Shown: one piece after another, positions 22,360-39,489 of the stretch
Numbering within the stretch: the stretch's first letter is position 1
How the letters are laid out: each line of letters opens with the position of its first letter
Origin: Pedobacter aquae
GTDB taxonomy: Bacteria > Bacteroidota > Bacteroidia > Sphingobacteriales > Sphingobacteriaceae
Direction: 5' to 3'
DNA: 64,000 bases
Assembly: GCF_008195825.1 (NCBI RefSeq)
Contig: NZ_CP043329.1
Span: 868,001-932,000, forward strand
Position numbers and translations under genes: made by a program
The notes under the pieces: model-generated
What the model was told of the DNA's origin: nothing
Databases searched by the model: none
The model's input: the letters and a program-made list of their open reading frames with translations, nothing else

Positions 22360-23659
22360 AATATAAAAAGTTTTAAATGTTTGATAGCTAGTGTGTTGTT
22401 TTATTAACAAAATTTTATGATTTTATATAAATGTGCCTTTTTGAGTATGTAAAGCCTTATTTTATCGGGGAAAAATGTGTAATTTTTACCTCAAATATTT
22501 TCATATTAAGATAAAATTGTCTTTAAAATAGGTGGTTTTGTTCGTGATTTTCAGTTGCCAACTGCCATTAATTCAGTTTCTAGTTGAGAGTTTCCAGTTT
22601 CCAGTTCTGGATGGTGAGTTTTATTGATTGATTTTTGATGGATTGAATTATTGATTAAGAGATTTTTGTGTCATCGCGATGAGGAACGAAGAAGCAATCT
22701 ATTTTTAATTTTTCCTTTTGAATTTTTAATTTTCCTTTTTAATTTTTAATTTTTCCTTTTGAATTTTTAATTTTTCCTTTTTAATTTTTCCTTTTTCCTT
22801 TTGAATTTTTAATTTTTCCTTTTTAATTTTTCCTTTTTCCTTTTGAATTTTTCCTTTTTAATTTTTAATTTTTCCTTTTGAATTTTTAATTTTTCCTTTT
22901 GAATTTTTCCTTTTGAATTTTTAATTTTTCCTTTTGAATTTTTAATTTTCCTTTTTAATTTTTAATTTTTCCTTTTTAATTTTTTCTTTTTCCTTTTTAA
23001 TTTTTCCTTTTTCCTTTTGAATTTTTCCTTTTTAATTTTTCTTTTTCCTTTTGAATTTTCCTTTTTAATTTTTAATTTTTCCTTTTGAATTTTTAATTTT
23101 CCTTTTTAATTTTTAATTTTTAATTTTTCCTTTTGAATTTTTAATTTTTCCTTTTTAATTTTTAATTAGAAAAGCCCATGCCGTACTACTATCATCCGCC
23201 AGTCCGGTGCTTTGCTTAACTCCTCGTCCATTTTCCGCAAAAGCTTCAAATGTCCTGTGGGGTATCGCCCTCGCCCCGGTTTAGGTGGGGTGGGGTTGAT
23301 ACATGTAGGTTGCAATACCTTTCAAAATATAATTGGGTGATATGAAATTTTATACTCAAGTCAAAATAGAAAAGAGCCTAATATATCCACAACATTCAAT
23401 TAATATTTTTACTGTTTCTTAGGGTGTATTCACTATATTGGACCTGTTAAATTAATTATCATTTTGTGAACTGAGTTAAAGAAATATTCAGTGATAAAAA
23501 GACTTCACAAACATGGCTTGTTGATAAAATAGGAAAGATCTATCAAACTAATGTTTACTACTTTCGTAATGTAAGAACCAAGTTTAAGGCATCAATGCCA
23601 AATCGAGTAAATCCTTGACGGTGATATCAAAGTATTAATTGTTTCAAACAAGAATAAAT
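22360..23659. repeat. Long intergenic gap: T-rich tandem repeats, interspersed-repeat remnants, gene remnant
   Basis: At 22667-22705 is a fragment of a common Bacteroidota intergenic repeat (GTCATCGCGATGAGGAACGA). From about 22706 to 23165 runs a degenerate array of TTTTTAA, TTTTTCC and TTTTGAA units. At 23166-23300 the minus strand reads in two overlapping frames like a repeat found at the ends of many Sphingobacteriaceae loci (one frame gives KAPDWRMIVVRHG). At 23475-23618 an open stretch without start codon (ending FKASMPNRVNP) looks like a decayed gene end. The last 40 bases should hold the hsd promoter. Confidence 0.6.
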
Positions 23660-26430
23660 ATGAACAAACAAAAACTCGCTGCTAAAATTTGGGCATCTGC
23701 CAATCAGATGCGTTCAAAAATTGAGGCTAACGAATACAAAGACTATATTTTAGGTTTTATCTTTTACAAATACCTTTCAGAAAAGGAACTTCAATTTACA
23801 AAGAAAGAAGACTTCACGGAGGCAGACATAAAAGCATTGAGCGAAGAAGATACCGAAACAGTTGAACACATCAAAAGTAATATCGGCTACTTCATCGCTT
23901 ATGATAATCTATTTTCAACATGGATAAGCATAGATAAAGATTTTGATGTTGCCAATGTTCGTGATGCTCTTTCTGCATTTAGCCGTTTGATTAGTCCTGC
24001 TCACAAAAAATTGTTTGATGGCATTTTTGATACCTTACAAACTGGACTTAGCAAACTAGGCGATAGTGCAGCTTCTCAAACAAAAGCCATTCGTGACTTA
24101 CTACATTTAATCAAGGATATTCCAATGGATGGCAGGCAAGACTATGATGTGCTTGGTTTTATTTATGAATATCTAATTGAAAAGTTTGCTGCAAATGCCG
24201 GTAAAAAAGCAGGTGAATTTTATACCCCCACGAAGTATCGGTTTTGATGTCGGAAATAATCGCCCATCATTTGCGAGACAAAAAAGAAATTCAAATTTAT
24301 GACCCTACAAGTGGTTCGGGTTCTTTGCTCATCAATATTGGAAACAGCGTTGCAAAACACATAGATGATGAGAACAACATTAAATACTATGCTCAGGAAC
24401 TCAAAGAAAATACTTACAACCTAACCAGAATGAACTTGGTGATGAGAGGTATTTTACCGAACAATATTGTAACTCGTAACGGCGACACCTTAGAGTATGA
24501 CTGGCCATACTTTGACGAAAACGACCCTATTCATAGTTACAATCCACTTTATGTAGATGCAGTAGTTTCAAATCCACCGTATTCGCAAAAGTGGGACCCT
24601 GTTCACAAAGAAGCCGACCCACGTTATTCACGTTTTGGACTTGCACCAAAATCAAAAGCAGATTACGCTTTCTTACTGCATGACCTTTTTCACATCAAGC
24701 CTGATGGTATTATGGCTATTGTATTGCCGCATGGGGTGTTATTCCGTGGGGGTGAAGAAAGTATTATTCGTGAAAAGCTAATCGAATCAAATCATATTGA
24801 CACAATCATTGGTTTACCACCAGCGATATTTTTCGGAACTGGCATTCCAACTATCGTGATGATTCTTAAACAGAAACGTACCAACACAGATGTTTTGATT
24901 ATTGATGCATCCAAAGGTTTCGTAAAAGAAGGGAAAAACAACAAGCTAAGAGCGTCAGATATTAAACGAATAGCCGATACCGTTCGTGATCGTGAAACAT
25001 TGCCCAAATTTTCTAAAGTTGTAACACGAGAAGAAATCCGAGAGAATGAATATAACCTGAATATTCCTCGTTATGTTGATTCTTCTGAAAACCCTGAAAG
25101 TTGGGACATATACGCTTCTATGTTTGGCGGTATTCCTGAAAATGAAATTGACGAATTGCAAGTATTTTGGGAAGCTTTTCCTAAACTTCGAGATACATTG
25201 TTTGCCAAAAACTCACCTGTTAACTCAAACCTGATTGTTGACGACATCAACACAGCTATAAAGGAACACAAAAGCGTTCACGCTTTTGTAAACGGTTTCA
25301 ATACGGCATTTGCCGATTTTGGCAGTTACTTAAAAACCGAATTATTGACCAAAATCCTAACTGTAAAAGTCAACAGAGAAAAAACGGTGTTGAGTGATGA
25401 CATATTTAAGCGACTGGAAAACATCAAACTGATTGATAAATATGAAGCCTACCAACTTTTAGACAATGAATGGGGCGTAATAAATGTTGATTTAGAGATT
25501 ATACAAACGGAAGGGTTTGAAGCAACCAAAAAAGTGGACCCCAACATGGTTACCAAGAAAAAAGACGGAGTTGAACAAGAAGAGCAAGACGGATGGATGG
25601 GTAGAATTATGCCGTTTTTACTAGTGCAGGAAACTTATTTGAAAGACGAGCTAAACAGTTTAAGAACCAAAGAAAATAGAGTGGCTGAAATAGCCAGCGA
25701 GTTAGAAGAAATTATTGATTCACTTTCGGAGGAAGAAAGGGAAACAAGTATTTTAAATGACAATTATGATGCTTTTGTAGTAAAGGAGCTCAACGAATAC
25801 CTGAAAGAAATTTTTGCTGATGTGGAAACGGAAGAAATCAAAGTATTGAAGGTGTATTTAAACTTGCTTGAAAGCAAAGCAAAAAAGCCAGAGAAAGAAA
25901 ACTTCATAAAATCGCACAAAGAGGTGAATTGGTCGAAAATGGAGGCAAATAATGACGGCACTTTTGGCAAGGCAAATATCAACAAATACCTGTTTGAATT
26001 GCAATCAACTTTTACTTTCCCTGATGAATCTTTTGAAAACAAGATGGTGAAAGCATCAACTTTGTTGGTAGACGAAAAAGAGTTAAAAGCTCAAATAAAA
26101 GTAGCAGCAGCAGCACTACATTTAAAGACGAAAGAAACGATTGAGAACCTGACTGATGAACAAGTATTTGAATTGCTTGAGTTAAAATGGATTGTTCCAG
26201 TTGTTTCTTCATTGAACAATTTGCCCGAAACCATTATCACAACCCTTACCAACAAGGCGCAGACATTGGCAGACAAATACGCCATCACCTACTCTGATGT
26301 AGCCAAAGAAATTAAAGCAGCAGAAAGGACTTTGTCAATATTGATTGGCGACCTTGAAGGAAATGAGTTTGACATGAAAGGTTTGAACGAATTAAAATCA
26401 CTTTTAAAAACCGAAAAGCAAAATGGCTAA
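23660..26430 (+). pseudogene. hsdM: Type I restriction-modification DNA methyltransferase HsdM, frameshifted
   Basis: Residues up to GEFYTP (HsdM N-terminal helical domain, starting MNKQKLAAKIWASANQMRSK) end in a wrong-frame TKYRF stop at 24245-24247. The frame continues from 24247 with the N6-adenine methyltransferase core: DPTSGSGSLL (SAM binding, 24301) and NPPY (24571-24582). One extra C in the run at 24225-24229 (5 to 6) restores GEFYTPHEVSVLMSEI, the normal family sequence. The whole gene would encode about 920 residues, long for HsdM, with an extended helical C-terminus. It overlaps hsdS by eight bases. The break is either a sequencing error or real inactivation or phase variation. Confidence 0.88.
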
Positions 26431-27583
26431 AACAAATACAAATCCCGAAGTGCGATTTGCCGGTTTTACAGAAGCATGGGAAGAGCGGGAACTTGGTGAC
26501 GTTGCAAAATTCAATCCTAAGCATGAGATTCCTGATGTTTTCAATTATGTAGACTTAGAATCAGTAGTTGGCACAGAAATGATTTCTTACAGAAAAGAAT
26601 ATAAAATAACAGCACCTTCAAGAGCACAAAGACTAGCAGAAAAAGGAGACGTTTTTTATCAAACAGTTAGACCATATCAAAAGAATAATTTACTGTTTGA
26701 TAGGGAAGATAAGGATTTTGTCTTTTCAACTGGATATGCTCAAATGAGACCTGTAATTGAAAGTAGTTTCTTGTTTACGCTAATTCAAAAAGATGAATTT
26801 GTAAGAGTTGTTTTGAATAATTGCACTGGCACAAGTTATCCAGCAATTAATTCCACTGTCTTAGCTTCTATTAAACTGTATTTTCCTAAAAGCAAAGACG
26901 AACAAACCCAAATAGGCAACTTCTTTGAAAACTTAGACAATCTAATTACAGAAAACCAACAAAAACATACAAAGCTGCAATCGCTTAAACAAGCCATGCT
27001 CGATAAAATGTTTCCAAAACAAGGGCAGCTTATTCCAGAGATTCGTTTTAAGGGATTTGAGGGGAATTGGGAGGAAATCAATGTAGGTAGTATTTGCAAA
27101 ACAACAATAGGTGTGTTTGTTATCAAAACAAGGCAAAACGATTTAAGTCCTTATCCAGTTTATAATGGAGGAGTTTCATATACTGGGTTCTATGATGAAT
27201 ATAATAATGAAGCTAATAAAATCGTCATAAGTGCCAGAGGAGCGAATGCAGGTTTCGTCAACATTGTCAGAACGAAATATTGGGCTGGTAATAGCTGTTA
27301 TTCTGTTGATGTTTTGGACAAAGGATTATTTGATATTGATTTTCTTTTTTATTACATAAAAAAATATCAAAGGAGATTTCTTGAAAATCAACAATCGGCA
27401 AACATTCCATCAGTTTCAAAAAGTGATGTAGAAAGATTTAAAGTATTTTACCCTTCTAAAACTGAACAATCAGCGATTGCCAAATACCTATTGAGCCTTG
27501 ACAATCAAATTTCTAATCACGATTTACAAATCATAAAACTACAAAACATTAAAAAAGCATTTTTAGCCAAAATGTTTATTTAA
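26423..27583 (+). CDS. hsdS: Type I restriction-modification specificity subunit HsdS
   Basis: A 386-residue protein with the two-repeat HsdS layout: target-recognition domain 1 (about 10-160, starting FAGFTEAWEERELGDVAKF), central helical spacer (about 160-200, KHTKLQSLKQAMLDKMFP), target-recognition domain 2 (about 205-350, starting RFKGFEGNWEEINVGSI) and distal helix (IIKLQNIKKAFLAKMFI). The two domains each read half of the bipartite recognition site. The start codon overlaps the hsdM stop (ATGGCTAA). The sequence motif recognised cannot be predicted from this text. Confidence 0.9.
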   Translation: MAKTNTNPEVRFAGFTEAWEERELGDVAKFNPKHEIPDVFNYVDLESVVGTEMISYRKEYKITAPSRAQRLAEKGDVFYQTVRPYQKNNLLFDREDKDFVFSTGYAQMRPVIESSFLFTLIQKDEFVRVVLNNCTGTSYPAINSTVLASIKLYFPKSKDEQTQIGNFFENLDNLITENQQKHTKLQSLKQAMLDKMFPKQGQLIPEIRFKGFEGNWEEINVGSICKTTIGVFVIKTRQNDLSPYPVYNGGVSYTGFYDEYNNEANKIVISARGANAGFVNIVRTKYWAGNSCYSVDVLDKGLFDIDFLFYYIKKYQRRFLENQQSANIPSVSKSDVERFKVFYPSKTEQSAIAKYLLSLDNQISNHDLQIIKLQNIKKAFLAKMFI

Positions 27584-27596
27584 AAATTAGTACAGT

Positions 27597-30500
27597 ATGA
27601 CATTTACATCAGAAGCCGCATTTGAAGCCGCATTGATACAAGCTCTTTCTAATAAGGGTTGGGAAAAAGAAGTTTTGAAACGTCCTACTGAAAAAGACTT
27701 GTTGAAAAACTGGGCTAATATACTTTTTGAGAACAACAGAGCCAAAGACCGTTTAAATGACTTCCCATTGACCGAAGGGGAAATGCAACAAATATTGGAG
27801 CAGATAAATGCTTTACGAACTCCATTAAAATTAAACGGCTTTATTAATGGCAAAACAGTTTCGATAAAAAGAGATAACCCTGATGATACATTGCACTTTG
27901 GTAAAGAAGTAAGTTTAAAAATTTATGACCGATTAGAAATTGCAGCAGGGCAAAGCCGTTACCAAATTGCCCAACAACCTGTTTTCCCAACCAAGTCAAA
28001 AATATTAAACGACAGACGTGGCGACTTAATGCTTTTAATCAATGGAATGCCATTGATTCATATTGAATTAAAAAAGAACGGAGTTTCAGTAAGTCAGGCT
28101 TGCCATCAAATTGAAAAGTATTCACGAGGCGGAGTTTTTTCAGGCTTGTTTTCACTCGTTCAGATTTTTGTAGCAATGGAGCCAAAAGAAACGGTTTATT
28201 TCGCCAACCCTGGACCAGATGGCAAATTCAATAAAGACTTTTATTTCAATTGGGCAGACTTCAATAATGAGCCTATAAATGATTGGAGTGATATTGCTTC
28301 TTCGTTATTGTTTATTCCAATGGCTCACCAGTTAATCGGTTTCTATACCGTAGCAGATAGTAACGATGGCGTTTTGAAAGTCATGCGGAGTTATCAATAC
28401 TTTGCAGCCAATGCCATATCGGATAAAGTGGCCAAAACAGATTGGAAAAGCAAACACGCTTTAGGCGGTTTCATTTGGCACACCACAGGTTCGGGTAAAA
28501 CCATGACCAGTTTTAAATCTGCCCAACTCATTGCTAATTCGCAAGATGCAGACAAGGTGATTTTCTTAATGGATAGGATTGAACTCGGCACACAATCCTT
28601 GAAAGAATACCGTGGTTTCGCAAACGAAAATGAAGATGTGCAAGCAACGGAAAATACTGGCGTTTTGGTTACGAAACTTAAAAGTGATGACCCTGCAAAT
28701 ACCCTCATTGTTACGTCTATTCAAAAAATGAGCAACATCAAAGATGAAGATGTTGGACTAAATGCTCACGACATTCTACTCATGAACAAAAAGAGAATTG
28801 TTTTTATTGTAGATGAATGTCACCGTTCTACTTTCGGTGATATGCTTATCACGATTAAAGATACATTCTCATCTGCTATATTCTTTGGTTTTACAGGTAC
28901 TCCAATTCAAGATGAAAATCAAAAGAAATTAAACACTACATCCACCGTTTTTGGTGATGAACTGCACAGATATAGCATTGCAGATGGTATTCGAGATAAA
29001 AACGTTTTGGGTTTTGATCCATATAAAATCCTTACATATAGAGACCGTGATTTGCGATTAGCTGTTGCTTTGGAAAAAGCAAGAGCCAACAATGAAGTAG
29101 AAGCATTGGCAGACCCAAGAAAAGCAAGCGTATTTAATAAATACATGAATAGAGTAAGAATGGCAGGGCATTTTGAAACTTCGGGTCGTTACGTTCGGGG
29201 TATTGAAGATTATTTGCCAACTGCGCAATATGACCGTGATGAGCATTTTGAAAAAGTAGTTGAAGATATTTTGAGTAATTGGATTGTGCTAAGCCAAAAC
29301 GGAAAATTCCACGCCATTTTTGCCACAAGTAGTATTGCTGATGCAATCCATTATTACTGTCTTTTCAAGGTAAAAAATCCGCACTTAAAAATCACCGCAT
29401 TATTTGATCCACACATTGACAATAATGGGAATGCAGCCTACAAAGAGGACGGTCTTGTAGAAATAATGACCGATTACAATGAACGCTATGAGCAAGATTT
29501 TAGGTTAGCCAATCATGCCAAATTCAAAAAAGATATTGCGGCAAGACTGGCACACAAAGAGCCTTATTTAAGAATTGAAACAACTCCCGAAAAGCAAATT
29601 GATTTATTGATTGTAGTTGACCAAATGCTTACAGGCTTTGACTCCAAATGGATTAATACACTTTACATGGATAAAGTGCTTCAATATGAAAATATCATTC
29701 AAGCATTTTCAAGAACCAATCGCCTTTTTGGACCTGATAAACCGTTTGGAACAATTCGCTACTATCGAATGCCACATACAATGGAACGCAACATCAATGA
29801 TGCGATTAAACTGTACTCCGGCGACAAGCCAATCGGACTTTTTGTTGAGCATTTAGATGTCAATCTCTATTCGATGAATTACGTTTTCGGCGAAATTCAA
29901 AACTTATTCATAACAGCAGGAATTGATAATTTCGAGAGACTTCCTGATAATTTATCAGAAATAGGTCGATTTGCTATACTTTTTAAGACGTTCAATAATT
30001 ATTTAGAAGCAGCAAAAATTCAAGGCTTCAATTGGAACAAATCAACCTACAGTTTTGGAAAAGGAAAAGATAAGGTAACCATTCAAATGGCTTTGAATGA
30101 AAATACCTATTTGATACTAGCGCTTCGTTACAAAGAACTATTTAATACAGGTGGTGGCGGTGGTGGCGGTGATGTGCCTTTTGAAATTGAAGGTTATTTG
30201 ACCGAGATAGATACCGACAAAATAGATTCAGATTATATGAACTCTCGTTTTGACAAGTTTATCAAAGAACTTAAAAAAGGAGATGTTGACCCAACAGAAT
30301 TACAAAACACGTTGGACGAATTGTATAAATCATTCGCTACTCTGACACAAGAAGAACAGAAATACGCAAACCTTTTTATTCGAGATGTTCAAACAGGTGT
30401 TGCAAATCTTGAAAGCGGAAAAACTTTTAGAGAATATATAACAGAATATGAGTTCAACGCAAAGAATGACCAAATAAAGATAATCTCAACACTATTCGGA

Positions 30501-30725
30501 CTAGATGAATCAAAACTTCGATTACTCATGTCATCTGGCTTAACAGAAGCAAATATCAACGAATACGGACGTTTCGATGAGTTGAAAAACACGGTTGACA
30601 AGTACAAAGCAAAATCATATTTTGAAAAAGTAGAAGGGAATACTATTCCTGCTTTTAAAGTAAATATCAGAGTTCACAATCTATTACAAAAGTTTATAAT
30701 TGAAGGTGGTTTTGATATTGAATAA
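27597..30725 (+). CDS. hsdR: Type I restriction endonuclease subunit HsdR
   Basis: A 1042-residue motor-nuclease subunit. The N-terminal PD-(D/E)xK nuclease shows HIELKKNG (Glu157 and Lys159). The SF2 helicase follows with Walker A TTGSGKT (about 296-302), DECH box (406-409) and GFTGTP; the second RecA lobe contains DQMLTGFDSKW and QAFSRTNR. An odd seven-glycine run (GGGGGGG, about residue 850) precedes the C-terminal domain that contacts HsdM. It translocates DNA and cuts unmethylated invaders. It starts 13 bases after hsdS. Reading frame is intact, so restriction would be present without a functional methylase if the hsdM frameshift were real, which argues for a sequence error there. Confidence 0.92.
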   Translation: MTFTSEAAFEAALIQALSNKGWEKEVLKRPTEKDLLKNWANILFENNRAKDRLNDFPLTEGEMQQILEQINALRTPLKLNGFINGKTVSIKRDNPDDTLHFGKEVSLKIYDRLEIAAGQSRYQIAQQPVFPTKSKILNDRRGDLMLLINGMPLIHIELKKNGVSVSQACHQIEKYSRGGVFSGLFSLVQIFVAMEPKETVYFANPGPDGKFNKDFYFNWADFNNEPINDWSDIASSLLFIPMAHQLIGFYTVADSNDGVLKVMRSYQYFAANAISDKVAKTDWKSKHALGGFIWHTTGSGKTMTSFKSAQLIANSQDADKVIFLMDRIELGTQSLKEYRGFANENEDVQATENTGVLVTKLKSDDPANTLIVTSIQKMSNIKDEDVGLNAHDILLMNKKRIVFIVDECHRSTFGDMLITIKDTFSSAIFFGFTGTPIQDENQKKLNTTSTVFGDELHRYSIADGIRDKNVLGFDPYKILTYRDRDLRLAVALEKARANNEVEALADPRKASVFNKYMNRVRMAGHFETSGRYVRGIEDYLPTAQYDRDEHFEKVVEDILSNWIVLSQNGKFHAIFATSSIADAIHYYCLFKVKNPHLKITALFDPHIDNNGNAAYKEDGLVEIMTDYNERYEQDFRLANHAKFKKDIAARLAHKEPYLRIETTPEKQIDLLIVVDQMLTGFDSKWINTLYMDKVLQYENIIQAFSRTNRLFGPDKPFGTIRYYRMPHTMERNINDAIKLYSGDKPIGLFVEHLDVNLYSMNYVFGEIQNLFITAGIDNFERLPDNLSEIGRFAILFKTFNNYLEAAKIQGFNWNKSTYSFGKGKDKVTIQMALNENTYLILALRYKELFNTGGGGGGGDVPFEIEGYLTEIDTDKIDSDYMNSRFDKFIKELKKGDVDPTELQNTLDELYKSFATLTQEEQKYANLFIRDVQTGVANLESGKTFREYITEYEFNAKNDQIKIISTLFGLDESKLRLLMSSGLTEANINEYGRFDELKNTVDKYKAKSYFEKVEGNTIPAFKVNIRVHNLLQKFIIEGGFDIE

Positions 30726-31403: not shown

Positions 31404-32192
31404 ATGATGTTGAAAACTAATTTCGAAAATTTACTTCATATAATTAAAGAATTAGATGAAGATTTAAACAAAAATGAAGTCCAAAAAGAGATTCAAAAGG
31501 TTATACTGGAACCCAGATTATCTCTTAAACAATTAGCGGCTTATCCATTGGCAAGTGCTAAAGCTAAGTTAAGTATTTTAACAAAGGCAAAGTATCCAGG
31601 AAGCTACATTCCAAGATTTTACGAGGAAGCTAGAAAAATTATTTGCAATACATTCTCTTCTAATTATCCTGATGCAGAAATTTATTTTGAAGAATTTGAG
31701 AGATATGCAAATATACTTCTTCAAGAGGCTCAGAGTCTAGATAGGGATAACAAGAAGAATAAGATATGCTCTTCAAATGCACTGAACGAAATGCGACATT
31801 TAAGTTCTATCCTTAATCCTATATTAGAAACTTTTATTCTGAATAGTAACCTAAAAAAAACTAGAGAACACCTTTACATACAAGAAGTGAGAATTGGCTG
31901 TATGGCAGATATATTAATCTATGAAAACGGAGGAGCTACTTTAACAGGGTTATTAAAATTCAATTTCACTAAAGCACCATTAAAAAAGAGAGAAGCGGAA
32001 AATATGTTGTACATAATGAAACTATTTTTTGAAAGAAATTCACAAGTTAGCTTTAAGAATAAGAATTGTATTCTTGTAGATGTCTTTGCTCATAAGCTTT
32101 ATATATCAGCAAATGATGCTCAAATCAGTGTGGACATTAAAAATTCTTGTAAGGAAATAAGAGATACTTGGAGTCTGATCACAAAAAGTTAA
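31404..32192 (+). CDS. Hypothetical protein, possible PD-(D/E)xK-like fold, 262 aa
   Basis: A 262-residue soluble protein not recognised as a known family. Residues 1-130 are mostly helical (starting MLKTNFENLLHIIKELDEDL). Around residues 170-195, RIGCMADILIYENG followed by TGLLKFNF has the Asp then x-x-Lys spacing of a PD-(D/E)xK nuclease core, but the match is weak. A strong AGGAGG-type ribosome-binding site precedes the double ATG. It lies between a restriction system and a DRT1 reverse transcriptase, so a defence role is plausible. The next gene starts 65 bases downstream on the same strand. Confidence 0.5.
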   Translation: MMLKTNFENLLHIIKELDEDLNKNEVQKEIQKVILEPRLSLKQLAAYPLASAKAKLSILTKAKYPGSYIPRFYEEARKIICNTFSSNYPDAEIYFEEFERYANILLQEAQSLDRDNKKNKICSSNALNEMRHLSSILNPILETFILNSNLKKTREHLYIQEVRIGCMADILIYENGGATLTGLLKFNFTKAPLKKREAENMLYIMKLFFERNSQVSFKNKNCILVDVFAHKLYISANDAQISVDIKNSCKEIRDTWSLITKS

Positions 32193-32257
32193 TCTTATAA
32201 ATAAGTTAGACACGGAATCTTAAAATATTTAAAAAAGTCAATTAATATTAGCGAATA

Positions 32258-33135
32258 ATGTTGACCTACAATGAACTTATTGATTTAAGGAGCAAGTTAG
32301 CTAATGATGAAATTCCCTTAGAACTTGCTAAGGAACTATATTGGAAGGATTTTAAAGGGGGAAACGTTCGTGGCACACAAAAGATTGGAAGGAAAGACGA
32401 GCTAAAATTCTTAAAGAAAAATGCGAAATATGCGATAGTACAAATACTTTAACTATTCAGCATCTTTCTCATCCAAAAAAATATGCAGACTATGAGAGAG
32501 AAGTAACAAGAAAATACACACAAATTTTTAAAGAAATTAATTCTGACATTGATAAATCAGAATTTAGGAAATATATCGTAGAAAACTATAATTACATAGC
32601 TGTTCCTTTATGCACAAATTGTGGAGACAACCGTCCTAATAAGAGGGTGAGGAAATTACCTCAGTATCGTTGTGCAGTATGCCAACACGAGTTTGATGAG
32701 CCAATTTATAAATCGTTAGAAGAACTCATCACAATTTTTTATAATAACGAAGAAGCTCTTGATGTTCGGGATAAGTGTTTTATATCGAAAAAATGGAAAA
32801 ACAATCACAATTTATCTAGTATAAAATATTGGTTTCAAAGAGAAAAGGCTAAAAATAAAAATGAAGAAATAATCGAGAAAGAAGCATTCTTACTCTATTT
32901 AACTGACGAAATAAAATATCTATCATTTGAAGATACAATAACAGCTTGTAGAAGGTGTGCCTTTAACTATGATTTGAAAAATATGGAGTTATGCCCTAAC
33001 TGCAAAGTACATTACAAAGGTATTCAGTATCAAACTTGTATTCCATGTTTGCCTGAAGATAAAAGAAAACTAGTTTTAGAAAGTATTGAGTTTGCTAAAG
33101 AAATGGAAGAAATACATAGAAAGCTTGGTCTATAA
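32258..33135 (+). pseudogene. HNH/zinc-ribbon nuclease-like protein, frameshifted
   Basis: The N-terminal 34 residues (MLTYNELIDLRSKLANDEIP, ending WKDFKGG) run into a wrong frame. One extra G in the run at 32357-32361 (5 to 6) restores a continuous protein of about 292 residues. It then contains KRSWHTKDWKERRAKILKEK, the HNH-like block CEICDSTNTLTIQHLSHP, and further zinc-binding pairs (LCTNCG, CAVCQ, CRRC, CPNC, CIPC). The treble-clef pattern suggests a metal-dependent nuclease or nucleic-acid binder. Coupled with the upstream unknown gene it may form a defence pair. As printed, only fragments are translated. Confidence 0.6.
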
Positions 33136-33240
33136 ATCTCATTAATGATTTATTTCTTTTTGTGTTAATAATCCAAAAACAATTCTTTTCATATTTAAGA
33201 AAAATATTTCTATTATTACAATATAATTCTTATTTACGTT

Positions 33241-33612
33241 ATGAAAAATTTCTATACCATACTATTAATTGCTTTATGTGCAGTATCTCTTAATATAAAA
33301 GCACAAGAAACACCTAAAGAACAGCCCACTAAAATCTCTATAAAAGAAGCCCCACAATACCTCAATAAACTTGTAACCATTTGCGACTCCGTTTACAGCA
33401 CCAAAGCCTTAGAAAAATTAACCTTCTTAAACTTTGGCGGTAACTTCCCCAATGCACCAATAACATTGGTGGTTTTTAAAAGTGATGAAGCTAAATTTCC
33501 TCAAGAACCAGCCACCCTATACAACCATAAACGTATTTGTGTAACTGGAAAGCTTACGGAGTATAAAGGGAAATTGCAATTGGTTCTTAATGGAGTGGGG
33601 CAGGTTAATTAA
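33241..33612 (+). CDS. Secreted OB-fold-like protein
   Basis: A 123-residue protein with a clear signal peptide (residues 1-20, ending NIKAQ). The mature part shows an OB-fold-like pattern: LVTICDSVYSTKALEKLTFLNFGGNFPNAPITLVVF, then HKRICVTGKLTEYKGKLQLVLNG, as in short periplasmic nucleic-acid-binding OB proteins. Function unknown. Its composition looks like core genome rather than the A+T-rich flanking defence genes, so it may be a resident gene between two insertions. Confidence 0.6.
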   Translation: MKNFYTILLIALCAVSLNIKAQETPKEQPTKISIKEAPQYLNKLVTICDSVYSTKALEKLTFLNFGGNFPNAPITLVVFKSDEAKFPQEPATLYNHKRICVTGKLTEYKGKLQLVLNGVGQVN

Positions 33613-33732
33613 ACATATTATGAATTTATAGGGTGGATATGCGCTATGGGATAACGGATATTTACTAACCTGCAAGACTAAAAAACCAGTAGTGCAATCA
33701 TTAATAAGACAGACAAAAAAGAAATTATACCA

Positions 33733-36700
33733 ATGAGGATGTCAGAAATATCAAAAGAAGAACTTAAAGAAGCTTACATAAAACTCAAATCACATATTTA
33801 CTATGATACGACAGAATTATATCAACGAAGAAAATTAGCTGAATTTGAAACAGGTTTACTTGATGATGATTATTTATTTGGTCAAAAGAAAACACCATAT
33901 GCTAATGGTATTTTTAATCTCAATGTTAAGCTGGAAGATAAATTTGATAAAATTGTTGAATGGATAAACAATCACAAGAAGGAAAGCACATTTGAACAAT
34001 TTCTTGACGATATCAAACTAATTTACCTCCCAAAGAAATTTAAAAAAACAGATAATGGAGATAATTTTCTTAGCAATCAGAGAGTTCAAGATCATTATGA
34101 AGTTGAAAGGGTCACCGTATTTGCTGACATACCAATCGAATTACATCTTGTAACAATTTTATGGTTGACACAGTATGGTTATAAATTAGATGTAAAACTT
34201 GACGAAAGTTGTGTTGGCAATAGATTAATACTAAATAAATCGAAAGATAGAATTGTAAAAGGAAGCGGTTTATTTAAGCCCTATTTTAGTCAATATCAAA
34301 AATGGAGAGACCAATCTGTTGAGGAAGCCCAAAGAAAGTTACAAAGTGGAAGTAAAGTAGCCTTTATTAATCTTGACCTCAAGGATTATTTCTATTCAGT
34401 CCGTATAAATTTTGAAGAAATTGAGAAAGTTATATTTGGTGAGTCTGGTTATAAAGGCGGTTCTAACATTCACGATATTTTTAAAGAGTTTCACTTTCGT
34501 TTTACTAAAAAATTAGCCGAAAAGAAATACCCCAACAAGTTTATTGAAAATATTCTTACAAGAGATGTGGTACTTCCAATTGGTATTGCTTCATCCTATG
34601 TCCTTGCCAATTATTACTTAAACGATTTTGATATTAGAATCAGAAAGTTAATCCCTCAAGTTTATTATAGTCGTTACGTTGACGATATTCTTATTGTTAT
34701 TGAAAATCCCGACTTTGATTTTCATAAAAATGAAAAATGCGAAAGTGTAAGATTTAGTTTCAAAAAATACTATGAAAAAGAAAAGAGTAAAGAGAAAGTA
34801 ACTTTTGCACAAACAGAGGAAGATTATTTCAATAAATACATCGTTTCAAAAACAGAAAGATTTATCTTAGAAACCCTATACCCATTGGTGAAATTGATTG
34901 ACTTTCCTGATGAATTGAAAACCATAGAAGTCAATGATAAGGTAGAATGTTGTTCAGTAAAAAATGAAAAAAAGATTTTTAAAATCACTTGCTTGGAAGG
35001 AGCATATTTTCAAGGGGATAAAACATTATTGTATTACTTCGATAATGAAGAATCAACTGCAGTTATTGATAAATTAAAGCAAGAGTTAGAAGAGCGTACA
35101 AGTGAATTTAGAGATTTTCCTGAAGATGGAATGGGTGATGGTTCTTTTGACGAGCAGGCATATCATTTAGTTTTTGATGGAACGGAAGGCAAAATACGAA
35201 CACTAAAAGATTACAAGGAAAATCGTTACGGATTAAGCGTTTTCTTAGCTAATAGAATATTTGCAGCACTTCGAAGGTCAAAAAAGGTTGACAAAAAGGA
35301 AACTGAAAAGCTATTGAAACTTTTTAAAGGGTTAAATAATTTAGAACATTTCAGACTTTGGGAAAAAGTATTTACATTTCTTCTAGTTAATGAAGACCAG
35401 GAAGGCTTCGTATTGTTTTATAAACACACTCTTGAGCAGATTCAAAAACTTAATAAAACTACTAAGATTCAAGATTCAGAAATCACTTACAATAATGTAG
35501 CAAATTCTTTAATGCAGTATTTTGACATTTCATTAGAAATGCCTTTAGCACTAAATCCTGATTTTATTAAAAAAGGTACTAAGCCATATAAAGACCTTGA
35601 AATATTCCATAACACTTACAAGGATGATGTAAGTTTTTGGAATAACATAACTTTGACCAAACCTGGTTCATTTTACATTTACAAATTTCGTATGTGTAAT
35701 TTAATTAGACATAATTATGTGGCGCATCCATTATTAAACTATACAAAAGCTTCTGGTTGGTCACCATTAAATTTAGTTGACCGAAACTTACCAACTTCAC
35801 AAAAGTCAATTGATAAATTAGAATTTTCTGACGAAAAAAAGGAGCTTTCACCTCGTCTTGTAAAGTTTTGGGAATGTTGCATTGCAATAACTACAAATAA
35901 ATTGCTTAAAAATTCAAAAGATTTTATTGTGGGCGATGAAAGATACCAATATACAAGCATATTAAACGACAGTAAGAAAGATGAAGATTTTATTCTAGAT
36001 GAAGCATTCAAACTATATTCAGAAATTAATGCTTCGCACTTTACTTCAGACTCTCCAGACATAAGTGACTTCTTTACACGTGTACACAAGAATATTACGC
36101 AACTTAATGGAGAAAATGAAGTTGAAATAAATGAATTACATATCAATACTAATGAACGGTTTATCGAAAAACCTTCAATTTCAATAGCAAATACTCAAGT
36201 CAAAATATCAAATATTGAATCCAGCATTAAGGGTAAACCTAACTTAAGTAATCAACGATATTTGACCTTTGCAAAACTTTTAAAGGATTCAAGAAAAGGA
36301 GGAGCAGATATTTTTGTTCTTCCTGAGTTTTCTGTTCCTTATGAATTTGTATCAAGTCTTGCAAAATATAGCGAGAAGAATCAAATGGCCATTATTGCAG
36401 GTCTAGAACATTGGAAAGTTGAAGACGTTTGTTATAACTTCATTGTTTCAATAGTTCCTGTAAAAATTAATGGTGTAAATGATGCTATTGTATTATATCG
36501 TCTTAAAAACCATTATGCACATGTCGAAGAGTTAATTATTAGAGGTTATGGGTACAGAGTGCCAAAACCAAAACCATATCGTTACGACTTGATAAATTGG
36601 CGAAATTTATATTTTACTTCTTATTACTGTTTTGAACTTGCGGATACCTTTCATAGAAGTATTTTTCGTTCAAAGATTGACTTGTTAATTGCATCAGAAT

Positions 36701-37053
36701 GGAATAAAGACACTCCTTACTTTTCAAACATTGTGGAAGCACTTTCAAGAGATTTACATTGCTATATTGCACAAGTTAATACGAGTCAATTCGGCGACTC
36801 TCGTTTGACACAACCAGCAGAATCAGCGCTTAAAGACTTAATGAAGTTGAAAGGCGGTAAAAATGATACTATTATACTTGAGGACCTAAACATCAATGCC
36901 CTAAGAGAATTTCAACTCAAATATTTTGAAAGAATCAAAGCAGACCAAGACGATTCATTTAAACCTTTACCGCCTGACTGGAATAGAAAAGATGTTAACA
37001 ATCGCATTGACAATAAAAACATATTTTCGAAGGATAAGCATGATGATGAATAG
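33733..37053 (+). CDS. DRT1-type defence reverse transcriptase fused to a nitrilase domain
   Basis: A 1106-residue protein. The N-terminal reverse transcriptase has the first catalytic Asp215 (AFINLDLKDYFYSV), PIGIASSYVLANYYL, and the active-site box YVDD (residues 315-318). A long middle region (about 400-810) is of unknown fold. The C-terminal domain (from about 815) is a carbon-nitrogen hydrolase with the Glu-Lys-Cys triad: Glu865 (VLPEFSVPYEF), Lys925 (YRLKNHYAHVEE) and Cys966 (SYYCFELAD). An RT-nitrilase fusion is the definition of defence-associated reverse transcriptase type 1 (UG1-like), an anti-phage system. It appears to be a single gene with its own leader. Start chosen at ATG 33733; Met3 is an alternative. 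Confidence 0.85.
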   Translation: MRMSEISKEELKEAYIKLKSHIYYDTTELYQRRKLAEFETGLLDDDYLFGQKKTPYANGIFNLNVKLEDKFDKIVEWINNHKKESTFEQFLDDIKLIYLPKKFKKTDNGDNFLSNQRVQDHYEVERVTVFADIPIELHLVTILWLTQYGYKLDVKLDESCVGNRLILNKSKDRIVKGSGLFKPYFSQYQKWRDQSVEEAQRKLQSGSKVAFINLDLKDYFYSVRINFEEIEKVIFGESGYKGGSNIHDIFKEFHFRFTKKLAEKKYPNKFIENILTRDVVLPIGIASSYVLANYYLNDFDIRIRKLIPQVYYSRYVDDILIVIENPDFDFHKNEKCESVRFSFKKYYEKEKSKEKVTFAQTEEDYFNKYIVSKTERFILETLYPLVKLIDFPDELKTIEVNDKVECCSVKNEKKIFKITCLEGAYFQGDKTLLYYFDNEESTAVIDKLKQELEERTSEFRDFPEDGMGDGSFDEQAYHLVFDGTEGKIRTLKDYKENRYGLSVFLANRIFAALRRSKKVDKKETEKLLKLFKGLNNLEHFRLWEKVFTFLLVNEDQEGFVLFYKHTLEQIQKLNKTTKIQDSEITYNNVANSLMQYFDISLEMPLALNPDFIKKGTKPYKDLEIFHNTYKDDVSFWNNITLTKPGSFYIYKFRMCNLIRHNYVAHPLLNYTKASGWSPLNLVDRNLPTSQKSIDKLEFSDEKKELSPRLVKFWECCIAITTNKLLKNSKDFIVGDERYQYTSILNDSKKDEDFILDEAFKLYSEINASHFTSDSPDISDFFTRVHKNITQLNGENEVEINELHINTNERFIEKPSISIANTQVKISNIESSIKGKPNLSNQRYLTFAKLLKDSRKGGADIFVLPEFSVPYEFVSSLAKYSEKNQMAIIAGLEHWKVEDVCYNFIVSIVPVKINGVNDAIVLYRLKNHYAHVEELIIRGYGYRVPKPKPYRYDLINWRNLYFTSYYCFELADTFHRSIFRSKIDLLIASEWNKDTPYFSNIVEALSRDLHCYIAQVNTSQFGDSRLTQPAESALKDLMKLKGGKNDTIILEDLNINALREFQLKYFERIKADQDDSFKPLPPDWNRKDVNNRIDNKNIFSKDKHDDE

Positions 37054-37226
37054 CAACATTTAGACATTTATAACTTTAGCATGCTGGCGGACAGAAGCCC
37101 AGCACATAACAGCACCTACCCAAAAGTGGGCTTCATTAGTTAAATCAAGCTTTGCGCTTGTTTTAACAGTTTTATACATCTCCCCGAAAGTAATAAACAA
37201 TCAATCTTTAACAATTATAACGATTA
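37054..37226. other. Structured gap after the DRT1 gene
   Basis: Contains GCTGG paired with CCAGC (about 37083-37100), CCCA paired with TGGG, and an AAGC/GCTT hairpin followed by TTTT. CATAACAGC and TTAGTTA elements recall attC-like arms, but no full palindrome is formed. It could serve as a terminator, a remnant recombination site, or an RNA linked to the RT. Confidence 0.3.
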
Positions 37227-38285
37227 ATGTCTAAGCCAAAATTTTCAGCAAATCAGTTAGCGGATCCTCGTTTTGAGGATGTTAATTCAGCGGATATTCT
37301 TAGATATTTCATACAAAAAATAAGCAAAAATGAATTGAAAAAGTTGAAGATTTTTGAAAAAGAATATTTAATTATTTTAATGAAAAATATTGTTAAGGAT
37401 GAGATACAAAATGAACTCAACCCTCCTGATTACATTTTAGCAAATAAGTTTAAATATCTAGCATTTAATCCTTATGATTATAAAGAACTAGATGAAGCTA
37501 CCTTTAATCATTTAGTTCTATTTTATTATGATAATTTAGACTTTCTTATGCCCATTTCATTTACCTATAATGGAATAACAAGGCAATATACGAGAGAAGA
37601 GATTGATTTAGATCGTAATAAATTTAATCAACTTCTTTTTTGGTGGAAAGAGCAACTTAGTGTTGGTAATAAATCAAGTCCATTATTAAAAGAAATCAAG
37701 GATGAGTATCATAAAAAAGTAGAAATATTGAAAGAATATTTTAATCAGAGATCTTTTGGGTATAATTTATTTAAAAGAAACGTTTTAAAATGGGAGTGTC
37801 TAATGTTTTATATATACTTTATTATTAAGAAATATTTACAGTCTAGAGATGTAAAAGAGTTATGCGAAGTGGTAAATAACAAATACATTATTACAAATTA
37901 CAGTTTTGTTCATATTCTTTCACGACATTATTTTGCTGACTTTAATACGATTTATTTTAACAAGACTGTTATTAGAGATGAAACATTGTTTGATCCATGG
38001 AATTTACCGCAAGGTGTAAAAATAATTATTGAACTATTTGAAGAACATCGTCCTAATTGGGATACCGAGAAAGATCACTTATTTTTCCGCTATAATTTAA
38101 CAACGTACATATTATATTTCAAAGAAAAGTTTGTAGATAAATTAGGACATAAACTAAAGGAAATAAGAACTCTTTACCCAGTTTCTACCGAAAGTGATAA
38201 TAAAAAGCTTACTATTTTAAAGACACAAAAAAAAATTATCGATTATGTATTTTTTATGATTAAAATTAGATTTTTAAGTTTATAA
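37227..38285 (+). CDS. Hypothetical protein, 352 aa, in defence island
   Basis: A Lys/Asn-rich, strongly A+T-biased gene with 352 residues, without signal peptide or clear membrane segments. Hydrophobic-aromatic stretches (WECLMFYIYFIIKKYL about residue 190; FVHILSRHYFADFNTIYF about 230; RYNLTTYILYFKEKFVDKLGHKLKEI near 290) suggest an alpha-helical fold. I do not recognise the family. Composition resembles phage-defence genes and the location beside DRT1 supports a defence role, but this is inference. It starts 170 bases after DRT1, so it may be transcribed separately. Confidence 0.55.
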   Translation: MSKPKFSANQLADPRFEDVNSADILRYFIQKISKNELKKLKIFEKEYLIILMKNIVKDEIQNELNPPDYILANKFKYLAFNPYDYKELDEATFNHLVLFYYDNLDFLMPISFTYNGITRQYTREEIDLDRNKFNQLLFWWKEQLSVGNKSSPLLKEIKDEYHKKVEILKEYFNQRSFGYNLFKRNVLKWECLMFYIYFIIKKYLQSRDVKELCEVVNNKYIITNYSFVHILSRHYFADFNTIYFNKTVIRDETLFDPWNLPQGVKIIIELFEEHRPNWDTEKDHLFFRYNLTTYILYFKEKFVDKLGHKLKEIRTLYPVSTESDNKKLTILKTQKKIIDYVFFMIKIRFLSL

Positions 38286-38358
38286 ATTGAATGTATTAGA
38301 AAGATATATTTATTCAACTAATGATGAAATCTATCGCTAACTATCTTCTCTAAATTCC

Positions 38359-38496
38359 ATGAAATTCATACATATCATCTACCTCATATTGATAACCATA
38401 ATTATCATATTAGCCTATAACTCTATCCAAAAAATCAAATCTATGCGTGAAAAATACTATAGACCTAGTGTTACAACATCACTTAAGGCAGCTTAG
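38359..38496 (+). CDS. Small single-pass membrane protein (45 aa)
   Basis: A 45-residue frame whose residues 3-22 are a continuous hydrophobic helix (FIHIIYLILITIIIILAYNS), followed by a basic tail (KKIKSMREKYYR region). This is the layout of type I toxins and of small membrane stress peptides. It is too short for certainty. No antisense RNA or partner was identified. Confidence 0.4.
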   Translation: MKFIHIIYLILITIIIILAYNSIQKIKSMREKYYRPSVTTSLKAA

Positions 38497-38653
38497 TCCG
38501 CTCTCTAAAATATATCAGCCATCTTTTAACAAACTCCTATTTTTTAATTTTATTTAACTCTTTTCCCTTTAGAAGTTACGCTTTTACTATGACAAGATAG
38601 TTAAGAATCTATGAGAAAGCTTCAATTTTAAATGCTAATTCATTTATATTGTT

Positions 38654-38884
38654 TCAAGCATTAAAGTCTACTAATTCTTTAGCTTCTACACCTAAACCTT
38701 TTGCTAACTCAAAAATAGTGGATAATCTAACATCGAACTTTCCGTTCTCTATTTTAGAAATATTACTATCATCTAAATCACAATTTTGAGCAACCTTACG
38801 GAGCGTTAAATTCTTCTTTTTTCTCATTTGCTGGATTTTTTCACCAAACTTTCTCTTAATTTCTGTAGTATCTTTTTGAATCAT
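38654..38884 (-). CDS. XRE-family transcriptional regulator
   Basis: A 76-residue protein consisting of a single Cro/CI-type helix-turn-helix: GEKIQQMRKKKNLTLRKVAQ, then DLDDSNISKIENGKFDVRLSTIFELAKGL. Such minimal regulators commonly control neighbouring accessory genes. It is transcribed toward the defence island from its downstream edge and may repress genes there; the target is not known. Confidence 0.8.
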   Translation of the reverse strand: MIQKDTTEIKRKFGEKIQQMRKKKNLTLRKVAQNCDLDDSNISKIENGKFDVRLSTIFELAKGLGVEAKELVDFNA

Positions 38885-38999
38885 TCAAAGTCTTATTACA
38901 AATCCTTTGAAGTTCTTTAGATTAAGAAAAAAAATTGCGGTTAAATATTACCATAAATTAAAATACTTTTTTATATTTGATTTTAACTTAAACAGGTAT

Positions 39000-39210
39000 T
39001 AATAAGAGTCTTGCAACACCATTTCTGACGCCGTTGAAGCAAGAGCAACAGATTAGTACCCATATCTATGTGTAGATGTATATATTTGTACGTCGAAATA
39101 GATGTGGGACTGTTGTAAATCCATTTCAACGTAAGGCGTCAGAAACTTTAAGGTGTTATGGTATGCGGTCCCACATGTATTTAAGCATTCCATCAAAATA
39201 AGACTCGTTA
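39000..39210. repeat. Large nested imperfect palindrome
   Basis: Complementary blocks occur in mirror order: AACACC (39015-39020) with GGTGTT (39152-39157), TTTCTGACGCC (39022-39032) with GGCGTCAGAAA (39135-39145), GTTGAA (39033-39038) with TTCAAC (39125-39130), CAACAG (39046-39051) with CTGTTG (39110-39115), and CCCATATCTAT with ATAGATGTGGG (39098-39108, one mismatch). Outer AGAGTCTT/AAGACTC pairing extends it. GTGGGAC also pairs with GTCCCAC at 39169, giving an alternative fold. A MITE or structured RNA are both possible. Confidence 0.7.
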
Positions 39211-39220
39211 ACATCATAAT

Positions 39221-39331
39221 ATGAAAACGAGCAACATTTACCCAAGCAAACAGCAAAAAGCAATTAAAGCCAAAAGCTTTGCTGCATCCCTTAAAAATCT
39301 ATTCAAAAACATCATTAAAAGTCCGGTATAG
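39221..39331 (+). CDS. Small basic peptide (36 aa)
   Basis: Frame starting MKTSNIYPSKQQKAIKAKSF and ending NIIKSPV, rich in Lys. It is followed by a convincing terminator (39345-39412), which supports an independent short transcript. It lies upstream of a thioredoxin-like/SusC/SusD operon, and short peptides at this place occur in related genomes, but its role is unknown. Confidence 0.4.
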   Translation: MKTSNIYPSKQQKAIKAKSFAASLKNLFKNIIKSPV

Positions 39332-39344
39332 GGGCAAAGACATC

Positions 39345-39412
39345 AACCGGTCTGGCCCATTGCATCCCATGAAATAAGTTAAAAAGCTGTTAATAGCCCG
39401 GCCGGTTTTTTC
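39345..39412 (+). terminator. Intrinsic terminator after the small peptide gene
   Basis: AACCGG near 39345-39350 pairs with CCGGTT (39402-39407), with GGCC and GGGC partners extending the stem, a loop of about 30 bases, and a run of six T (39406-39411). Confidence 0.65.
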
Positions 39413-39489
39413 TATCTGAGAAGAGTGCTTAATGATAACATTTCGACTCCGCTCCATGTGACAAATCCTTAAACCCAAACACAAAAAAA

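What the first reader, a model, noticed from the sequence alone, without database searches (positions are those of the whole stretch)
33733..37053. DRT1-type reverse transcriptase-nitrilase defence gene
YVDD active site and a C-terminal nitrilase domain with visible Glu865, Lys925 and Cys966 in one 1106-residue protein. This architecture defines defence-associated reverse transcriptase type 1. The 400-residue middle region has no assignment. The adjacent gap has several small hairpins that could be part of a template RNA.
Basis: partly seen in the sequence, partly recalled or inferred. Interest (0 to 1): 0.75.

Follow-up and report, generated by a model that had tools for sequence, protein, structure and literature searches.

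The report
UG5 reverse transcriptase-nitrilase defence gene
The gene is a genuine bacterial anti-virus protein joining a reverse transcriptase to a nitrilase enzyme, but it belongs to the UG5 family rather than to DRT1 as first proposed, and it most likely works without any RNA template.

Summary
The protein is UG5-nitrilase (UG5-large), not UG1/DRT1: PADLOC gives RT_UG5-nitrilase 779.9 bits, Drt1a 93.9, and in the RT tree three UG1 rows form a separate 100/100 branch. Asp215/317/318 are 80/80; Glu865, Lys925, Glu932, Cys966 are 80/80, 79/79, 79/79, 77/78. The middle region is predicted helical; its fold match is inconclusive. Template RNA is not supported: the 3' hairpin is a dispersed repeat with five other matches in the genome, and 12 of 60 relatives have 60 bp or less on both sides. 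UG5 and UG1 profiles align collinearly to a C-terminal K-P-x-P-P motif resembling the DRT1 lid. Ser457, the only hydroxyl residue at least 95% conserved between palm and nitrilase, is my candidate DNA-priming site. Relatives often adjoin type I restriction genes (15 of 80), but so do 2 of 20 control RT loci, no significant difference. New member of a known kind; mechanism inferred.

The parts
33733..37053 (+). UG5-nitrilase (UG5-large) gene, 1106 aa; start at 33739 (Met3) is a possible alternative
   Evidence: ORF; PADLOC RT_UG5-nitrilase 1.1e-234; RT tree
34315..34815 (+). Reverse transcriptase core (Pfam RVT_1, residues 195-361)
   Evidence: Pfam 41.6 bits, cut-off 29.6; Asp215, Asp317, Asp318 80/80
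34675..34686 (+). YVDD active-site motif, residues 315-318
   Evidence: invariant in 80 rows, but part of the retrieval pattern
35101..35103 (+). Ser457, candidate DNA-priming residue at the start of a flexible loop (inference)
   Evidence: Ser in 78/80 rows, 44/46 below 50% identity and the only S/T/Y at least 95% conserved in 331-800; low-confidence loop 457-469 in the model; within one to several residues of the UG1 VSG serine in two profile alignments that disagree there
35224..36132 (+). Middle helical region, about residues 498-800
   Evidence: AlphaFold2 models; only weak HEAT/ARM-like matches, Z at most 7.6
36157..37002 (+). Nitrilase (CN-hydrolase) domain, about residues 809-1090
   Evidence: VIA-align Z 22.0, rmsd 3.0, 230 aligned to 2e11_A; Foldseek E about 2e-8; Pfam CN_hydrolase only 14.3 bits, below cut-off
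36325..36327 (+). Nitrilase Glu865
   Evidence: 80/80
36505..36507 (+). Nitrilase Lys925
   Evidence: 79/79
36526..36528 (+).
   Evidence: 79/79
36628..36630 (+). Nitrilase nucleophile Cys966
   Evidence: 77/78, one Ser
36961..36975 (+). C-terminal K-P-L-P-P motif, residues 1077-1081, proposed counterpart of the DRT1 lid (inference)
   Evidence: Lys1077 74/76, Pro1080 74/76, Pro1081 72/76; aligned to UG1 KTPPAG by hhalign
37091..37172 (.). Dispersed hairpin-forming repeat in the 3' gap; not specific to this gene
   Evidence: five other matches in the own genome, four at 85-89% over 53-80 nt and one of 21 nt; also in L049 and in L134 (L102 is the same region as L134)
23639..30725 (+). Neighbouring type I restriction-modification genes: hsdM in two frames (23639-24247, 24244-26430), hsdS 26423-27583, hsdR 27597-30725
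   Evidence: Pfam and PADLOC

Best explanation
This is a single-gene class 3 defence RT of the UG5-nitrilase (UG5-large) family. Shown here: a complete RT catalytic set, a complete nitrilase catalytic set, a predicted helical middle, and collinear profile similarity with UG1/DRT1 down to a C-terminal lid-like motif. Inferred by homology: the RT adds short DNA to a serine of its own (best candidate Ser457) without an RNA template; the DNA-bearing protein assembles into nitrilase-core oligomers; the C-terminal K-P-x-P-P tail closes the nitrilase pocket and keeps the enzyme dormant; phage replication disturbs that state and the nitrilase then acts on an unknown substrate to stop the cell. My confidence by step: family assignment about 0.97; template-free protein-primed synthesis about 0.8; lid and dormant-assembly control about 0.55; Ser457 as the primer about 0.45. 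The stated confidence is for the explanation as a whole.
For: PADLOC best hit RT_UG5-nitrilase; the same model is best for six fused relatives and both halves of a split one, while a UG1 control scores Drt1a 1242 bits. RT tree of 102 rows: query inside the UG5 set, UG1 apart. Catalytic residues near-invariant. Model pLDDT 85.3, pTM 0.89; nitrilase fold Z 22.0. hhalign UG5 (61 rows) against UG1 (6 rows): probability 99.6, E 4e-24; my own run (99.5, 2e-22) puts Glu865, Lys925, Glu932, Cys966 and Lys1077 on their UG1 counterparts. Literature: DRT1, 'DRT5S' and 'DRT5L' make protein-attached DNA without a supplied template; DRT1 needs both RT and nitrilase, primes on Ser402 in an unresolved loop, and loses defence with K1219A or A1223F in its C-terminal loop (PMC13275509, sections 5-8). 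L069 has lost both Cys966 (Ser) and Lys1077 (Glu), as expected if the two work together, though it is one sequence.
Against: No activity was measured on this protein. PMC13275509 states that Ser402 is not conserved in other class 3 DRTs, and my two profile alignments place the UG5 serine one to several residues off the UG1 serine. Tyr15 and Tyr23 are also near-invariant (76/80, 77/80) and could prime instead. Several relatives are two separate ORFs, so fusion is not required. That the paper's 'DRT5S/L' are UG5-small/-large is my inference from 'class 3' and S/L; in the older numbering DRT type 5 is UG16. Oligomer and lid states were not modelled. The UG1 profile has only six rows. The nitrilase substrate is unknown.
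Confidence: 0.65

Rival explanations
1. It is a DRT type 1 (UG1) protein.
For: Same RT-helical-nitrilase order, same catalytic residues, collinear profile alignment with UG1.
Against: PADLOC Drt1a 93.9 bits against 779.9 for UG5-nitrilase; the three UG1 rows form a separate 100/100 branch of length 2.29; 15-17% identity in the profile alignments; the VSG-type motif seen in most UG1 rows is replaced by TSEFR.
Confidence: 0.02
2. The RT copies a structured non-coding RNA encoded in a flanking gap, like retrons, DRT2 or DRT9.
For: The 3' gap folds better than dinucleotide shuffles, z -2.76, 0 of 200 as good.
Against: That hairpin belongs to a dispersed repeat with five other matches in the genome, also near a DRT3 locus and upstream of a TIR-Argonaute pair; the 5' gap folds no better than shuffles (z -0.70); neither gap finds a match beside the UG5 gene of the 74% identical relative L018; 12 of 60 relatives have same-strand ORFs within 60 bp on both sides; no Rfam match reaches its gathering score.
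Confidence: 0.04
3. The DNA product itself is the toxic effector, as proposed for random-DNA-making abortive infection RTs, and the nitrilase is only a structural oligomerisation core.
For: Nitrilases typically act as oligomers, and some other defence RTs act through their DNA product (PMC13275509, passages and discussion).
Against: The nitrilase catalytic residues are near-invariant (77/78 to 80/80), more than a bare scaffold would need (inference), and in DRT1 the catalytic Cys is essential for defence.
Confidence: 0.1
4. UG5-nitrilase is a guard of type I restriction, set off when a phage blocks or bypasses the neighbouring HsdRMS enzyme, as PrrC is.
For: 15 of 80 relatives have a same-strand hsd gene within 200 bp, some as hsdM-hsdS-UG5-hsdR with gaps or overlaps of a few bases; precedent: prrC embedded in ecoprrI (PMC12707154, passages).
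Against: 2 of 20 control RT loci (a retron, a UG1) show the same; Fisher p 0.52 computed with 16 of 80, so specificity to UG5 is not shown. In the window the hsd genes end 3.0 kb upstream and hsdM is out of frame. Embedded genes can act on their own: TgvAB protection did not depend on HsdR restriction activity (PMC11411939, passages).
Confidence: 0.08

Closest known systems
UG5-nitrilase / UG5-large RT (PADLOC RT_UG5-nitrilase PDLC03780)
   Same: Near full-length match, residues 3-1091, 779.9 bits; same catalytic residues and layout as the other members.
   Different: Nothing basic seen; the protein is about 200 residues longer than the 907-position profile.
DRT1 / UG1 RT-nitrilase (PDB 9YFD per PMC13275509)
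   Same: RT, helical middle, nitrilase and a C-terminal lid-like motif (K-P-x-P-P here, K-T-P-P-A-G in UG1) in the same order.
   Different: Separate RT branch; 15-17% identity; different motif in the priming loop; no solved UG5 structure was found by sequence.
'DRT5S/DRT5L' of PMC13275509
   Same: Class 3; purified proteins make covalently attached DNA without a supplied template (section 5). Presumably UG5-small/-large.
   Different: Identity with UG5 is my inference; their priming residue and structure were not given in the sections read.
Nitrilase/amidase superfamily enzymes (e.g. 2e11, yeast Nit2)
   Same: Fold and the Glu-Lys-Glu-Cys residues (tetrad recalled and described in PMC13275509, section 8).
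   Different: Fused to an RT; substrate unknown; Pfam CN_hydrolase below cut-off.

Membership tests
UG5-nitrilase (UG5-large) | Best profile match is UG5-nitrilase over nearly the full length | tested here: met
   1.1e-234, residues 3-1091
UG5-nitrilase (UG5-large) | RT domain groups with UG5 and apart from UG1, DRT3 RTs, UG36 and retrons | tested here: met
   deep forks inside the class 3 clade are unresolved, and only three UG1 rows and one UG36 row were used
UG5-nitrilase (UG5-large) | Intact RT Asp residues and nitrilase Glu-Lys-Glu-Cys | tested here: met
[quoted passage not shown]
   reported for 'DRT5S/L' in PMC13275509
UG5-nitrilase (UG5-large) | Anti-phage activity | not testable with these tools
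   no experiment
DRT1 (UG1) | Best profile match and RT clade are UG1 | tested here: not met
   93.9 bits against 779.9; separate branch
DRT1 (UG1) | RT-nitrilase fusion | tested here: met
   shared with UG5 and so not diagnostic
DRT1 (UG1) | Conserved priming serine (Ser402 of the published DRT1) | tested here: inconclusive
   Ser457 lies in the matching loop, but alignment there is uncertain by one to several residues; the paper says Ser402 is not conserved in other class 3 DRTs
DRT1 (UG1) | C-terminal lid motif with its Lys | tested here: met
   Lys1077 aligned with the Lys of UG1 KTPPAG; its function was not tested
RNA-templated defence RTs (retron, DRT2, DRT9) | Conserved structured RNA gene beside the RT | tested here: not met
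Type I RM-embedded guard (PrrC-like) | Gene lies inside an intact hsd operon | tested here: not met
   in the window 3.0 kb downstream of hsdR, hsdM out of frame; met by some relatives
HEAT-like alpha-repeat of UG/Abi RTs | Helical repeat fold in the middle region | tested here: inconclusive
   helical in both models; best Z 7.6, within the range of common arrangements

The most novel reading that the evidence does not exclude
UG5-nitrilase proteins are self-primed, self-caged nitrilases that double as sentinels of type I restriction: the DNA made on Ser457 holds the lid shut, and phage attack on, or escape from, the neighbouring Hsd enzyme releases it. The recurrent hsdM-hsdS-UG5-hsdR layouts with overlapping genes would then be functional coupling rather than ordinary defence clustering.
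Probability: 0.08. Interest if true: 0.65.

Novelty: new member of a known kind. Interest (0 to 1): 0.36.

Why it matters
Class 3 defence RTs are called the least characterised class (PMC13275509, passage). Two residue-level predictions follow that a bench laboratory can test at once: Ser457 as the DNA-priming residue of UG5, and Lys1077 with the K-P-x-P-P tail as the counterpart of the DRT1 nitrilase lid. If both hold, DRT1-style DNA-caged control extends to a second, widespread family (records of many bacterial phyla and some archaeal MAGs among the 80 loci). The correction from UG1 to UG5, and the removal of the template-RNA idea, also prevent a wrong experiment.

Tried and rejected
Template RNA in the gaps: rejected. 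DRT1/UG1 label: rejected. Downstream ORF 37227-38285 as a partner: no PADLOC, Pfam or NCBIfam family, no tblastn match in the loci held by then (L002-L118), one weak match (24%) in 18 genus genomes besides itself; rejected as a conserved component. ORFs 31404-32192, 32647-33135 and 33241-33612 likewise have no match in those loci. Mobile carriage: no match in 50,697 phage records; five plasmid records at 25-28% identity over 45% of the query; in IMG/VR 47 loci, of which four cover most of the protein and the rest only short RT stretches. Type I RM link as UG5-specific: not shown against the small control. Empty-site comparison: left flank found in 7 of 18 and right flank in 6 of 18 genus genomes, own genome included; apart from the own genome no contig carried both, so it was inconclusive. 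The solved-structure sequence search found only weak RT matches, E 0.33 or worse; Foldseek of the middle region gave no match at E 0.001, which does not show a new fold. No DRT1 structure appeared among the 50 rows shown by each fold search of the whole model; the library ends in April 2026.

Rows dropped: L084 from the 80-row alignment; A2 uses 61 rows (the query and 60 of 80 loci; the 20 left out are split, truncated, near-duplicate or disrupted ones and L080, which is long and fused); the tree has 7 of 8 fetched retron loci. Adjacency controls: 20 of the 22 retron, Drt3a and UG1 genomes found were fetched. L086 was first counted as hsdR and removed after Pfam showed a ResIII helicase. Only 10 of the hsd-like proteins were checked in Pfam: nine confirmed, L086 not; the others rest on my own profiles.
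Full report
Observation. The window carries an open frame of 1106 codons at 33733-37053 on the plus strand, present once in a one-contig genome of 3.85 Mb.

Family. PADLOC scores RT_UG5-nitrilase at 779.9 bits over residues 3-1091 and Drt1a (UG1) at 93.9. Pfam sees RVT_1 above its cut-off and CN_hydrolase only below it. Nine proteins scanned as a check behaved as expected: six fused relatives (L018, L022, L063, L070, L077, L069) and both halves of a split one (L044) have UG5-nitrilase as best model, and a UG1 protein has Drt1a. A maximum-likelihood tree of 102 RT domains sets apart retrons, two groups of RTs from DRT3 loci (one of them with the single UG36 row, a join the tool flags as long branches meeting) and a class 3 clade of 86 rows (95/95). 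Within that clade three UG1 rows form their own 100/100 branch, and the query groups with L018 (100/100) inside a 25-row group (99/94). Deep branching between UG1 and the UG5 subclades is unresolved. UG1 is DRT type 1 (PMC7699616, passage), and both UG1 and UG5 are fused to nitrilases (PMC8934634, passages), so the fusion cannot define DRT1.

Relatives. The family is sparse: 8 of 395 sampled phylum genomes and 4 of 60 near relatives, the own genome included in both. Across 80 rows the RT Asp residues are invariant and the nitrilase set is Glu865 80/80, Lys925 79/79, Glu932 79/79, Cys966 77/78; 46 rows below 50% identity give 46/46, 46/46, 46/46 and 44/45. The one Cys966-to-Ser member, L069 from a Methanobrevibacter MAG, also has Lys1077 changed to Glu.

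Structure. A model from 61 rows has mean pLDDT 85.3 and pTM 0.89. Residues 809-1090 or so are a nitrilase fold (Z 22.0 to 2e11, rmsd 3.0, 230 aligned; Foldseek E about 2e-8). The middle is predicted helical; folded alone (415-806) it has pLDDT 79.1 and only weak matches, many to HEAT/ARM-type proteins, best Z 7.6, which the tool counts as possibly just a common arrangement. It is therefore likely, not shown, to correspond to the alpha-helical repeat domain of DRT1.

Comparison with DRT1. The cryo-EM and genetic study of DRT1 (PMC13275509; sections 5-10 read) shows template-free DNA synthesis primed by Ser402 in an unresolved loop, DNA-dependent tetramers and filaments, a C-terminal lid loop in which Lys1219 and Ala1223 are essential, and abortive infection needing both enzymes; it also reports template-free, covalent synthesis by class 3 'DRT5S' and 'DRT5L', which I take to be UG5-small and -large. 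Profile alignment of 61 UG5 against 6 UG1 proteins is collinear (probability 99.6, E 4e-24, printed only in part; 99.5, 2e-22 in my own run without realignment). The second run places Glu865, Lys925, Glu932 and Cys966 on the UG1 residues, and the UG5 K-P-x-P-P tail (Lys1077 74/76) on the UG1 K-T-P-P-A-G tail. Of five UG1 proteins whose ends I printed, three carry VKT followed by P, K or Q and then PAG, the other two YPPAG- or HPPAG-type ends; the lid numbering of the paper fits the first kind (inference). Between the palm and the nitrilase (331-800) only Lys430, Ser457, Trp543 and Pro707 are at least 95% conserved; Ser457 is the only hydroxyl residue among them and opens a loop of low confidence (457-469). 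I therefore propose Ser457 as the priming site. Against it: the paper says Ser402 is not conserved in other class 3 DRTs, the two alignments disagree by one to several residues there, and Tyr15 and Tyr23 are also near-invariant.

No template RNA. The 3' gap folds with z -2.76 and the 5' gap with -0.70. The 3' hairpin (37091-37172) is a dispersed repeat: the own genome has five other matches, four of them 85-89% over 53-80 nt and one of 21 nt, and copies lie near a DRT3 locus (L134) and upstream of a TIR-Argonaute pair (L049). In the closest relative, L018, neither gap has a match beside the UG5 gene, whereas the end of the gene itself does. Of 60 loci with same-strand ORFs on both sides, 12 have 60 bp or less on each side, some overlapping (mechanically called ORFs of at least 100 codons). 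Only one Rfam match below E 1 was seen over 30726-39490, far under its gathering score.

Neighbourhood. Upstream lie hsdM (in two frames), hsdS and hsdR, ending 3.0 kb from the gene on the same strand. The stretch is AT-rich: the gene has 30.7% GC against 39-42% in four genes further right. Among 80 relatives, 20 have hsd-like genes in the fetched DNA (15 of 47 with at least 5 kb on both sides) and 16 have one within 200 bp on the same strand; each of these counts includes L086, which proved to be a ResIII helicase, so adjacency stands at 15 of 80. Layouts include hsdM-hsdS-UG5-hsdR (L074, L079, L095), hsdM-UG5-hsdS (L029) and hsdS-UG5-hsdM (L027). Of 20 control RT loci, four have an hsd-like hit in the fetched DNA (L128, L131, L139 and, weakly, L137), and two, a retron (L128) and a UG1 (L139), lie directly beside hsd genes (L139 ORFs); Fisher p 0.52 with 16 of 80 against 2 of 20, so enrichment over other defence RTs is not shown. 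Genes embedded in type I loci are known (PMC11411939 and PMC12707154, passages). I saw no report of UG5 genes in such loci in the listings, of which only asked about type I loci; the held library lacks many papers, including the main UG/Abi survey.

Split forms. Several relatives encode RT and nitrilase as two ORFs, mostly with 1- or 4-nt overlaps, broken at query positions 686-695 (L039, L044, L045, L047, L086), 731 (L042) or 793-795 (L090, L091, L095, L096). These fall in four places in the tree, so fusion state has probably changed repeatedly; L071, L082, L094 and L097 are less clear.

Verdict. What the nitrilase attacks, and what triggers it, remain unknown.

Noticed in passing
window 23639-26430: hsdM is out of frame: HsdM_N and the start of N6_Mtase lie in ORF 23639-24247, the rest in 24244-26430. 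Real inactivation, phase variation or sequencing error cannot be told apart.
   Followed up: partly
window 37091-37172; L134 4611-4693 and 9588-9654; L049 4619-4686: Dispersed hairpin repeat of about 80 nt seen in three Bacteroidota genomes, in L134 and L049 near other defence genes; five other matches in the own genome. Its exact 22-mer core was not found in viral contigs.
   Followed up: partly
L049 5097-10976: A UG5-nitrilase gene 34 bp downstream of a TIR-domain protein and a short Argonaute.
   Followed up: no
L128 and L139: A retron RT between hsdR and hsdS, and a split UG1 RT-nitrilase next to hsdR: type I RM loci host other defence RTs too.
   Followed up: partly
L117, L118: RT-nitrilase-like proteins on E. 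coli and Sinorhizobium meliloti plasmids, annotated hypothetical, about 25-28% identical to the query; they form their own branch inside the class 3 clade and were not scanned for family.
   Followed up: partly
window 91-4085: An SMC-like protein (DUF3584) with a DUF7281 protein that weakly matches Wadjet JetD.
   Followed up: no
window 22618-23160: Long T-rich tandem repeat region upstream of the hsd genes.
   Followed up: no
L069: A UG5-nitrilase with both the nitrilase Cys (to Ser) and the tail Lys (to Glu) lost, in a Methanobrevibacter MAG.
   Followed up: no
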